Under the pieces are notes generated by a model. The model did no database searches. It was not told where the DNA came from and worked only from the letters and a program-made list of their open reading frames with translations. The position numbers and the translations under genes were made by a program. A DNA stretch of 64,000 nucleotides from Reticulascus tulasneorum (Eukaryota > Ascomycota > Sordariomycetes > Glomerellales > Reticulascaceae): positions 3,596,001 to 3,660,000 of the forward strand of contig LSAX01000003.1 of assembly GCA_001557505.1 (NCBI GenBank), given 5' to 3'. This document shows, piece by piece, positions 32,983-36,806 of the stretch. Numbering within the stretch: the stretch's first letter is position 1; each line of letters opens with the position of its first letter.

Positions 32983-35416
32983 ATGGCCAAGTCCCGTAGG
33001 AGTCGTGTTGTTTCAAAGTTCTTAGGCCATTTCTCCAGCCCAGCAGACTCCGGTTACTCCTCCGCGGACGTATCTCCAGAGAGATGCGGAACGCCCGTTA
33101 ACTATTACCTTGGTTTCGACGGCCCGGGCTCGTTGGTGAGCTATGACTCTTCGTATAAGAGCGGGGAGCCCTCCAACCCGGTGACGCCCTGCAAGCCTCA
33201 GTCTAAATTCATAAGGTCTTTAGCTTCAAAGACCAATCTTTCGTTGCCCTCGCCAGTCGCAGATGTAACTCTGAAACCATTAAAGCGGGAAGCTTCCGCT
33301 CGGCCGACGCAGCGTGCTACTGGTTCTCTCAAATCCCCTGATCGATTTGTGCCCGTCCGAGATGGTTCTATTCCCACCTTCGAAAAGTACCGCACAACGA
33401 AGCAGGTCGAGGATCTGTCGCCTTCCGAAAAGTTGCTCAGGCATGGCAGCGCCAGCCCTGATCCATTTTCTATTCGGCGAAGGGCCGTGGTATCCATGGC
33501 TTCAGACTTTCGCCCAACTTTGAGATCTGACACGATTGGTGAGCCCCTATCTCACCAGCACCGGTATTAGCTGACAGCAACAGTTGGAACCGTTCTTGGA
33601 CCACTTCCCCAGAATCAAAGGGTAGTCGGCGAAAGGCGGGCAAGCAATGGGACCGTCTGGGCAGTTGGTGGAATCGCACCCAGCGGGGCTGCAATCGATG
33701 ATGGCCACGGGCGGCTCATTCGTAGCGGAACGAACGCGCAACTCTTCACTACGAATTTCCCCAGCTCGAAGCCCAAGGCGAACGAGGAGAGCGAGAAGCA
33801 TGAAGGTCGGCTTGCCACTGCTTTAAACATTGACCAAGCCACGAGAATCCTCGACTTTTATCAGTTCTCAACTTTCCCCTATTGTTCCCCAAAACAGAAA
33901 GTGAGGCAAGCTCTTATTGACCTGAAGACAACATGGAATGGCACCGAATGGATTAAGAAAGACAACCAACAAAGTACGGTGAAACCTAAGGTGTGTATTG
34001 TTCTCCTCCATCTTGCTGACATTCGCCCAAGAAGCTTCGCGGCCGCCCGAGACTAGAGCTTTACCAGTAGCGCCATTCAAAGTGCTAGATGCCCCGAATC
34101 TTCGTGATGACTACTACTGCTCGATACTTGCATACTCAGCAACTTGCTCAACTCTTGCAGTCGGGCTGGGCAACATACTCTACGGCTGGTCAGAGCCATT
34201 AGGGGTCAAGGTGCTAAACCAAGGTGGCTCTGATGCTTGGTTGACTTCGGTTGCCTTTTCATCTACCAATGGGAGCAAGTGCATCCTTGCATTTAGCAGG
34301 TCGAACGGATATTTAGGTCTGATGTCACTTTACGACAGCTTGCTTCCTCGATTCGACTGCCAACAGCCATTCCCTATAAACTGCGTTGGTTAGCGGCCGA
34401 CGAGTACGACGAGGCAGTCCAAAAATCCCTACTCACCAGGCATCAACGTTTTGACCGAAGACTTACTCGTTGGTGACGAGATGGGGAACGTCTACTACTA
34501 TATCGTCGAATGGCCGTCAGCATGGGAAGTTGAGAGAGACAACTGGCCGGGTACCATGACACTGGTAGGTCGCATTACAGTCCATGCTCAGCAAATTTGT
34601 GCACTCGTCTGGTCCCCCAATGGCGAATTCTTTGCCTCTGGCGCCAACGACAACCTCTGTTGTTTGTTTGAAGTAGAGAAGTTATTCCAGCGGAAACGGC
34701 GCGGCAGCACATCAAGTTCAACTATTCGCCGAGCCAAACGACCACAGAGTCACAGCATCTCGGAATATGATAGTCATGGGAGCGAGGAGCCAGCCTCTAT
34801 GGCTGAAGATGGAACGAGCATTCGCACAGTTAGAACATCGCCAGACAGCGTCAGGCACATCAAAGCCGGATCAGAAAACCACCGATGGATACATGGTGCT
34901 GCAGTCAAAGCTATCGCGTTCTGTCCCTGGCAGGATGGGCTCATTGCAACAGGTGGTGGATCCAACGACAAGTGCATTCATTTCTTCCACACACGGTCTG
35001 GAGCAGCTCTCGCTACCATCTTCGTTGCATCGCAGGTAACGTCGCTCATCTGGTCAACCACCCGCCGCGAGATCGCTGCGACATTTGGGTACGCTCAGCC
35101 AGAACATCCCTATCGTATTGCGGTCTTCAGCTGGCCAGATTGCAAGCAAGTTGGGGCTATCCCGTAGGACGGTGAGCATCGTGCCTTGTATGCTATTCCC
35201 TATCCCGGGGGGCCGGGTGATGCACGAAACCAGTCTGAGAGTCGGACAGCCAAGGAAGGCTGTATAGTTGTGGCTGCGAGTGACGAAAGCGTGAAGTTCC
35301 ATGAGGTATGGTCGGCGGAGCAGAGAGCTACTTTTGGGGGCTCGGGCATGCTTGGTGGGAGTGACATTTTGGAGGGATTGGAAGGCATTGATAAGGAAGG
35401 GGATATCATTCGTTGA
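32983..35416 (+). CDS. ama1: meiotic APC/C activator AMA1, interrupted by two TAG codons
   Basis: CDC20/Cdh1-type activator. Exons 32983-33538, 33584-about 33973 and about 34032-35416; the second intron boundary is inferred (GTACGG...CCCAAG with a TGCTGAC branch). Reading two in-frame TAGs as sense gives 776 codons. The C-box is DRFVPVR at 120-126; then SPSEKLLR, the WD40 propeller starting FKVLDAPNLRDDYYCS, and a C-terminal Ile-Arg tail (GDIIR) that docks on the APC/C. The TAGs, at 34391 (codon ~436) and 35165 (~694), fall where I expect Trp: CVG-TAG-RPTS and AIP-TAG-DGEHRALYAIPYPGG. Translation without correction would stop before most of the propeller. Sexual-stage A-to-I editing (UAG to UGG) is the best explanation; a pseudogene is the alternative. 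It opposes SYN8, with 464 bp between stops. Confidence 0.86.
34384..34402 (+). other. first in-frame TAG of AMA1 in a hairpin loop
   Basis: Stem CGUUGG (34384-34389) pairs over all six positions with CCGACG (34397-34402), with one U-G wobble. The seven-base loop UUAGCGG holds the TAG, with its A at 34392. Candidate A-to-I editing site. Confidence 0.7.
35156..35177 (+). other. second in-frame TAG of AMA1 in a small hairpin loop
   Basis: CCG (35162-35164) can pair with CGG (35170-35172), leaving loop UAGGA with the A at 35166. An outer GCU/AGC pairing (35156-35158 with 35175-35177) can extend it across bulges. This stem is weaker than the first. Confidence 0.5.
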
Positions 35417-35880: not shown

Positions 35881-36806
35881 TCATTTGAGAACCGCAATCA
35901 GGAGAATCAGAATGATAATCAGCGCTATGATGATCATCATCTGCTTGCTCTCGCCGGCGTCCTTGGCTATCTTCCCCAGCGACCTCTTGGCCCGATCCAG
36001 CCGACTCACATGCCGATCCGTGACCACATCCACCTCGTCCAGCATGGCGACTTGGCTGTCCAGCTCATCGCCGATTTGCATGCTCAGCTCTCGCTGGCGG
36101 CCGATACTCTCGCCCAGCCGATCCAGGTGCTCGTCCTGCTCCGAGAGGACCTGGTTGTGGTAGGTATGGATCTGCTCATTGGACAGCCCCTCGGCGTGGT
36201 CCCTGTAGCCGGCCGAGTCCGGGTCGTCGCGGTAGGGCTGGTGGCTGCCGAAGAGCTGGGCCTCGACATCGCCGTCTGGGGGCAGCGGCGAGTCGGAGAA
36301 ACGGACTGTTTTCGGGGAGGGGGCTGCGGCGGCGAGGACGGCGGAGTTGCGGAGGGACTTCTTGAGTGGCTTGGTCGAGGTTGCGTGGGCGAAGTCGCCG
36401 CTTAGAAGAGGGTCGTTGGGGTGGGTTAGGGTCGAGGTCGTGCCGGGACTGGAGAAGCCGTGGAACTGTGAGGTGAGGTCGTTGTATTGTTTCTGCAGCG
36501 AAGGCAACGAGTCGCTGATTGTCAACGCGGCGCTGGGTCATCAGTTAGTTCCAGCCATTGTCCTCGATCGCGAAGCTCGTAGCCTCTAGAGGTAGCAAAA
36601 GTGACGTACGTTTCATCGCCCGCGTCCTGCAGGCGCTTCTCCTCCTTCTGCAGCGCCTCGAGCCCATCGCGGAACTGGTCGAGCGAGCGCGAGATATGGC
36701 CGTCTTGCGTGTCGCTCTCGAGGTTGAGGGATTGCGCTCGTTGGCGCTCGAGGAGGGACAGCTTCACGTGGTCGGCGAGCAGGAAGAGCTGGTTCGGGTT
36801 CGACAT
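35881..36806 (-). CDS. syn8: endosomal Qc-SNARE, SYN8-like
   Basis: Exons 36806-36610 and 36532-35881, with a 77-nt intron (GTACGT...CCCAG, branch ACTAAC), give 282 residues. A helical N-terminal region precedes the SNARE motif, about residues 195-255 (from the HNQVLSEQDEHLDRLGESIGRQRELSMQI region to VTDRHVSRLDRAKRSLGKI). In it the central zero-layer Gln is the Q of LSMQIGDEL. A single C-terminal membrane anchor follows: MMIIIALIIILILLIAVLK. Tail-anchored Qc-SNAREs of this type act in endosome and vacuole fusion. The closest match I know is the Syn8/syntaxin-8 group; Tlg1 or Syx6-like is less likely because of length and the long N-terminal part. Confidence 0.85.

What the first reader, a model, noticed from the sequence alone, without database searches (positions are those of the whole stretch)
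34391..34393. AMA1 carries an in-frame TAG where tryptophan is expected: candidate A-to-I editing site
Seen: the frame before and after 34391 is the same and codes conserved WD40 sequence on both sides (CVG-TAG-RPTSTTRQSKNPYSPG, then LLVGDEMGNVYYY). From the CDC20/AMA1 family I expect CV-x-W-RP here, so one G-to-A change explains the stop. Known: Fusarium graminearum and Neurospora crassa edit A to I in sexual-stage mRNAs, including TAG to TGG rescue of broken frames, and I recall a Fusarium AMA1 orthologue among the reported targets. Inference: this gene makes full-length activator only during sexual development.
Basis: partly seen in the sequence, partly recalled or inferred. Interest (0 to 1): 0.95.

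Follow-up and report, generated by a model that had tools for sequence, protein, structure and literature searches.

The report
Meiosis gene with two editable stops
A fungal gene for a meiosis-specific cell-division activator is interrupted by two stop codons, each where relatives have tryptophan, and the fungus most likely edits both away in its messenger RNA when it makes sexual spores; this kind of editing is known, but these two sites seem to differ from the one in Fusarium.

Summary
Confirmed and extended. The gene at 32983-35416 (+) is AMA1, the meiotic APC/C activator. Of 120 listed homologues, 118 have Trp at the first codon (2 gaps) and 108 at the second (12 gaps); no other residue occurs. 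Both As have U at -1 and fall in hairpin loops in the standard 61-base fold. Protein after both stops is as conserved as in intact relatives. No credible intron removes either TAG. The same genome has uninterrupted CDC20 and CDH1 homologues, an AME1 orthologue with the editing-linked Met-Val pair, and a PUK1 orthologue with TAG-TGG, the state published for Neurospora. Best explanation: sexual-stage A-to-I editing of both UAGs makes the activator. RNA was not examined. Editing of AMA1 is already published for Fusarium graminearum, but gene-model gaps suggest that the Fusarium stop lies at another Trp. The fungus is a Sordariomycete near, probably outside, Colletotrichum. New member of a known kind; the possible novelty is independent placement of such stops at several Trp codons of one gene.

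The parts
32983..33538 (+). AMA1 exon 1, with the first ATG of the gene model
   Evidence: Open frame and homology
33340..33360 (+). C-box-like motif DRFVPVR
   Evidence: Sequence. A strict pattern DR[FYW][ILV]PxR is in 77 of 120 homologues. That the C-box binds the APC/C is recalled
33539..33583 (+). Intron 1, 45 bases
   Evidence: GTGAGC...CAACAG with a CTGAC branch motif; joins the frames
33584..33990 (+). AMA1 exon 2 (other model: ends 33973)
   Evidence: Frame; two frame-compatible models of intron 2 not separated
33991..34051 (+). Intron 2 (other model: 33974-34031)
34052..35413 (+). AMA1 exon 3, WD40 propeller, interrupted by two TAGs; TGA at 35414-35416
34391..34393 (+). In-frame TAG 1 (residue 435), Trp in orthologues; candidate edited A at 34392
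   Evidence: 118 of 120 Trp, 2 gaps
34384..34402 (+). Predicted hairpin 1; A34392 is the first base of a 3-base loop
   Evidence: 61-base fold; holds for flanks of 15 to 40 bases, not for 50
35165..35167 (+).
   Evidence: 108 of 120 Trp, 12 gaps
35162..35172 (+). Predicted hairpin 2; A35166 is the first base of a 3-base loop
   Evidence: 61-base fold; holds for flanks of 15, 25, 30 and 35 bases, not for 20, 40 or 50
35408..35413 (+). C-terminal Ile-Arg (IR tail), lost from the protein if either stop is used
   Evidence: 118 of 120 homologues end in IR; its docking role is recalled

Best explanation
This is a working AMA1 gene whose protein is switched off at the DNA level by two UAG codons at Trp positions. 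Shown here: two TAGs at Trp codons that do not vary among homologues, an otherwise intact frame, constraint on the protein after both stops, hairpin-loop contexts, and a genome with the editing activator AME1 and a second known target (PUK1) in the editable state. Inferred: in sexual tissue the Tad2-Tad3-Ame1 deaminase changes A34392 and A35166 of the mRNA to inosine, both UAGs are read as Trp, and a 775-residue activator with complete propeller and IR tail is made. Without editing, translation gives 434 residues with the C-box-like motif but only about the first quarter of the propeller profile; editing of site 1 alone gives 692 residues without the end of the propeller and without the IR tail. 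Active APC/C-Ama1 would then need both edits on one mRNA.
For: Trp at both codons in all homologues that have a residue there (118 and 108 of 120). Identity to six outgroup homologues is 65.7, 65.1 and 75.6% before TAG 1, between and after TAG 2, against 49-69, 62-67 and 62-72% for 12 other Sordariomycetes. U at -1, and a hairpin loop at both sites in the 61-base fold. L006 is an AME1 orthologue with Met-Val, the pair tied to mRNA editing (PMC11087585 passages). L010 is a PUK1 orthologue with TAG-TGG, as published for N. crassa NCU03242, edited in perithecia (PMC4817773 passages). CDC20 and CDH1 homologues L002 and L003 have no stop inside their matches. AMA1 is a published editing target in F. 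graminearum.
Against: No RNA or protein data. Hairpin loops hold 364 of 1175 UAGs of the window on both strands, so two of two is weak evidence, and the predicted loops vanish in some fold windows. Site 2 has disfavoured bases at -2 and +4, site 1 at +2. A RID-like and a SPO22 gene, orthologues of two published Fusarium targets, show no stop inside their matched domains here. Tad3 was not identified individually. GC at third positions does not single out the frame between the stops (0.553 against 0.527 and 0.516).
Confidence: 0.85

Rival explanations
1. AMA1 is a decaying pseudogene, for instance in a lineage that lost sex or in a gene hit by RIP; the TAGs are plain loss-of-function mutations.
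For: Two stops in the DNA; TG to TA changes are also what RIP leaves on one strand (recalled).
Against: Residues after TAG 2 are the most conserved of the 13 species compared (75.6%). No frameshift, TAA or TGA. RIP indices of the gene (0.68, 1.27) equal those of the window (0.68, 1.26). A very recent death would not show in these tests.
Confidence: 0.06
2. Introns remove the TAGs in the mature mRNA.
For: GT..AG pairs that keep the frame exist: 16 around TAG 1 and 17 around TAG 2.
Against: None of them has both a donor with at least 5 of 6 consensus bases and a branch motif, unlike intron 1. They would remove residues that homologues keep, such as W-R/K-P at site 1.
Confidence: 0.03
3. Ribosomes read through the UAGs, which serve as leaky stops.
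For: The frame goes on without other stops.
Against: Read-through does not predict that both stops replace Trp codons; UAG read-through usually inserts Gln (recalled). Two leaky stops in a row would give little product.
Confidence: 0.03
4. Assembly or sequencing errors, or a mutation private to this strain.
For: One assembly of 35 contigs; no reads to inspect.
Against: Two substitutions of the same kind at the same kind of codon, plus a third in PUK1.
Confidence: 0.03

Closest known systems
FgAMA1 (FGRRES_10728) of Fusarium graminearum: premature-stop-correction editing (PMC4817773 section 12 and passages; PMC11156358 passages; Hao et al. 2019 not held, not read)
   Same: Orthologous gene; in-frame UAG corrected to UGG by A-to-I editing in perithecia
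   Different: The F. graminearum gene model has Trp at both window positions. Its stop is probably at the Trp that matches window residue 384, inferred from gaps shared by three Fusarium models. Two separated stops here.
PUK1 / stk-21 (NCU03242): tandem UAGUAG or UAGUGG in the kinase domain (PMC4817773 passages)
   Same: UAG at invariant Trp codons corrected in perithecia; PUK1 also needs two edits in F. graminearum
   Different: Another gene; its stops are adjacent, those of AMA1 are 774 bases apart
CHE1 and zao: hyphal or virus-induced UAG correction (PMC11169179, PMC12754623, passages)
   Same: UAG corrected by A-to-I editing, U at -1 and hairpin loops
   Different: Not sexual-stage; zao is edited through OLD proteins, not Tad2-Tad3-Ame1

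Membership tests
Sexual-stage premature-stop-correction A-to-I editing | In-frame UAG where orthologues have Trp, frame otherwise intact | tested here: met
   Both sites
Sexual-stage premature-stop-correction A-to-I editing | U at -1 and A in a predicted hairpin loop (30 bases each side) | tested here: met
   Both sites, but background is 31% and some other fold lengths fail
Sexual-stage premature-stop-correction A-to-I editing | Protein after the stop under constraint | tested here: met
Sexual-stage premature-stop-correction A-to-I editing | AME1 with Met-Val at the Tad3 interface | tested here: met
   L006; MV in 51 of 120 listed homologues, KN in 47, others 22; the three Leotiomycete rows printed have KN
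Sexual-stage premature-stop-correction A-to-I editing | Tad2 and Tad3 deaminases present | tested here: inconclusive
   10 deaminase-domain matches; L017/L025 looks like Tad2 by eye; Tad3 not singled out
Sexual-stage premature-stop-correction A-to-I editing | A-to-G change in sexual-stage RNA only | not testable with these tools
   No RNA data
AMA1 meiotic APC/C activators | CDC20/Fizzy WD40 domain, C-box, C-terminal IR, best matches named AMA1 | tested here: met
   Cdc20 and Cdh1 homologues are other genes
AMA1 meiotic APC/C activators | Expression limited to meiosis or the sexual stage | not testable with these tools
   No RNA data
The F. graminearum AMA1 editing site itself | Stop at the homologous codon | tested here: not met
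   F. graminearum P0115 has Trp at both window positions; its own stop position is inferred, not read

The most novel reading that the evidence does not exclude
AMA1 is a repeated target: different Sordariomycete lineages have independently put editable stops at different Trp codons of the same gene (two here; another Trp in Fusarium; gene-model gaps over the window's site 1 in two Pyricularia and over site 2 in nine Xylaria, Nemania and Hypoxylon models). What selection keeps would then be the off-until-edited switch, not a particular site, which would speak against a neutral ratchet as the origin of such stops.
Probability: 0.35. Interest if true: 0.65.

Novelty: new member of a known kind. 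Interest (0 to 1): 0.5.

Why it matters
If both sites are edited, making an APC/C activator for meiosis depends on two separate editing events in one mRNA, a double gate. If stops arose independently at several Trp codons of AMA1, comparing them is a direct test of whether stop-correcting editing is adaptive or a neutral ratchet. It also warns that automatic gene models in these fungi may be cut, or bridged by false introns, at such codons.

Tried and rejected
Pseudogene and RIP: rejected. Intron over a TAG: rejected. Neighbour-base score: site 1 has 5 of 6 preferred bases and site 2 has 4 of 6, but 43 of 71 TRG triplets of the mRNA score 4 or more, so not discriminating.

Gene-model gaps as a sign of hidden stops in AMA1: of 75 internal gaps of 5-60 core columns, 41 hold a near-invariant Trp against 19.5 expected by random placement (0 of 20000 trials); collapsed to 37 distinct gaps, 19 against 10.3, P 0.001. 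A block missing from many Xylariales inflates this; without it, 14 of 32 distinct gaps against 9.2, P 0.037. Three of the 12 gaps at site 2 are in Lachnellula, a Leotiomycete genus (class recalled), a class in which editing has not been found (PMC11087585 passages), so gaps have other causes too. By class, gaps are 0 of 36 Leotiomycetes and 2 of 77 Sordariomycetes at site 1, and 3 of 36 and 9 of 77 at site 2 (7 unnamed proteins apart, none gapped). For PUK1 the gaps do track class: the first Trp is missing in 0 of 31 Leotiomycetes and 63 of 84 Sordariomycetes, with 5 unnamed apart, none gapped. Classes were assigned from organism names by recall.

Other kinases: 9 of 138 kinase matches have a TAG inside, and I fetched and read all nine by eye. 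L007, L008, L009, L022 (two matches) and L027 look intronic, L026 is unclear, L028 has a stop in a repeat where sister repeats have Gln; only L010 fits Trp. Near the SPO22 domain one in-frame TAG reads as a likely splice acceptor. Rfam and tRNA scans of the window found nothing. No fungal DNA other than this genome could be reached.

Full report
What is there. The + strand gene at 32983-35416 has three exons and two short introns clear of the TAGs; intron 2 has two frame-compatible models that I could not separate. Residue numbers below follow the 775-residue model; the other model is one residue longer. The product has a C-box-like motif, a CDC20/Fizzy WD40 domain and a C-terminal Ile-Arg, and its homologues include proteins named AMA1. 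It is distinct from the CDC20-like gene L002 and the CDH1-like gene L003 of the same genome, which have open frames of 570 and 461 residues without a stop.

The stops. Two in-frame TAGs interrupt it, at 34391-34393 (residue 435) and 35165-35167 (residue 693). The homologue search scored 7995 candidates and found 1169; I aligned the 120 that were listed. Position 435 is Trp in 118 and a gap in 2; position 693 is Trp in 108 and a gap in 12; nothing else occurs at either place. The frame has no TAA or TGA before its end.

Is the gene alive? I compared mean identity to six outgroup homologues: five named Leotiomycetes and one unnamed protein (P0020) that groups with them in the tree. The window scores 65.7% before TAG 1, 65.1% between and 75.6% after TAG 2; 12 other Sordariomycetes range over 49-69, 62-67 and 62-72%. 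A gene dead since the stops arose should fall behind in the later parts, and it does not, though a very recent death would not show. RIP indices equal those of the whole window. None of the 16 and 17 frame-keeping GT..AG pairs around the TAGs has both a fair donor and a branch motif.

Context. In the 61-base fold used in the literature (PMC4817773 and PMC9600606, passages) each A is the first base of a 3-base hairpin loop. Some hairpin loop is found for 364 of 1175 UAGs of the window on both strands, and that 3-base position for 11. I noticed the 3-base geometry after the fact, and it fails for site 1 with 50-base flanks and for site 2 with 20-, 40- and 50-base flanks. I treat the folding as consistent with editing, not as proof.

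Machinery and a second target. The genome has five DUF726 matches in three genes. L006 has Met-Val where the three Leotiomycete rows printed have Lys-Asn; published work ties this change to the Tad3 interaction and to mRNA editing in Sordariomycetes (PMC11087585 passages). The spacing to the catalytic Ser differs by one residue from the published numbering, as expected from one extra residue seen in the Hypocreales rows printed. L010 is an NDR-type kinase gene with TAG-TGG at the conserved Trp-Trp of the kinase domain, and that A also lies in a hairpin loop in the 61-base fold. Its homologues have the first Trp in 31 of 31 Leotiomycetes, while 63 of 84 Sordariomycete gene models skip it. Such false introns are what was described for PUK1, and TAG-TGG is the state reported for N. 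crassa NCU03242, which is edited in perithecia (PMC4817773 passages). So two sexual-stage genes of this genome carry UAG at Trp codons. Two other published Fusarium targets do not fit: the matched domains of a RID-like methylase and of SPO22 have no stop inside.

Which organism. G000 is a 42.8-Mb assembly. Its AME1 is nearest to Colletotrichum: 73.4-75.0% to 13 proteins of that genus, which among themselves are at least 79.3% alike. The fungus thus lies near, and probably outside, that genus, in or near Glomerellales. An AMA1 tree of the query and 59 homologues that I chose puts it on a long branch beside Microascales and Hypocreales (quick method, order names recalled). No protein named from Colletotrichum is among the 120 AMA1 homologues listed; broken gene models could explain this, but I could not look.

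Mechanism. Shown: gene, stops, conservation, context, cofactor gene, second target. Inferred: Tad2-Tad3-Ame1 edits both As in sexual tissue, and only doubly edited mRNA gives a complete activator. Products of 434 and 692 residues lack the IR tail, by which activators dock on the APC/C (recalled), so they should not work as activators. Before TAG 1 the Pfam match covers only positions 1-78 of the 292-position propeller profile.

Known or new. Stop-correcting editing of AMA1 is published for F. graminearum (PMC4817773 section 12; PMC11156358 passages). The dedicated paper, Hao et al. 2019, is not held; I saw it only as a reference. The F. graminearum gene model has Trp at both window positions. 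The stretch missing from all three Fusarium models compared (P0114, P0115, P0117) corresponds to window residues QGGSDAW, whose one Trp is residue 384, so the Fusarium stop is probably there (inference). Full-text searches of the held library for Colletotrichum with A-to-I, premature stop and perithecia found no paper, and for Glomerellales with A-to-I RNA editing found two, of which I saw only the listing. I file it as a new member of a known kind, with sites that appear new.

Noticed in passing
L010 position 2421 (G000 C1:2407920): PUK1-like kinase gene with an in-frame TAG at the first Trp of the conserved Trp-Trp, followed by TGG: a second candidate editing site in this genome.
   Followed up: yes
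L006 (G000 C12:1857865-1858972): AME1 orthologue with Met-Val at the position tied to Tad3 binding; nearest to Colletotrichum.
   Followed up: yes
P0104, P0109 at site 1; P0025, P0039, P0052, P0054, P0055, P0087, P0090, P0103, P0107, P0108, P0111, P0118 at site 2: AMA1 gene models of other fungi lack just the stretch around the window's stop positions, which may hide stops there; three of them are Lachnellula, a Leotiomycete genus.
   Followed up: partly
L028 (G000 C25:9000-12500): Kinase gene with tandem WD40 repeats and in-frame TAGs, one at a repeat position where sister repeats have Gln, so not the Trp pattern.
   Followed up: no
window 35881-36537 (-): Open frame just downstream of AMA1 on the other strand, ending in a hydrophobic stretch and SNARE-like by eye; not searched.
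   Followed up: no
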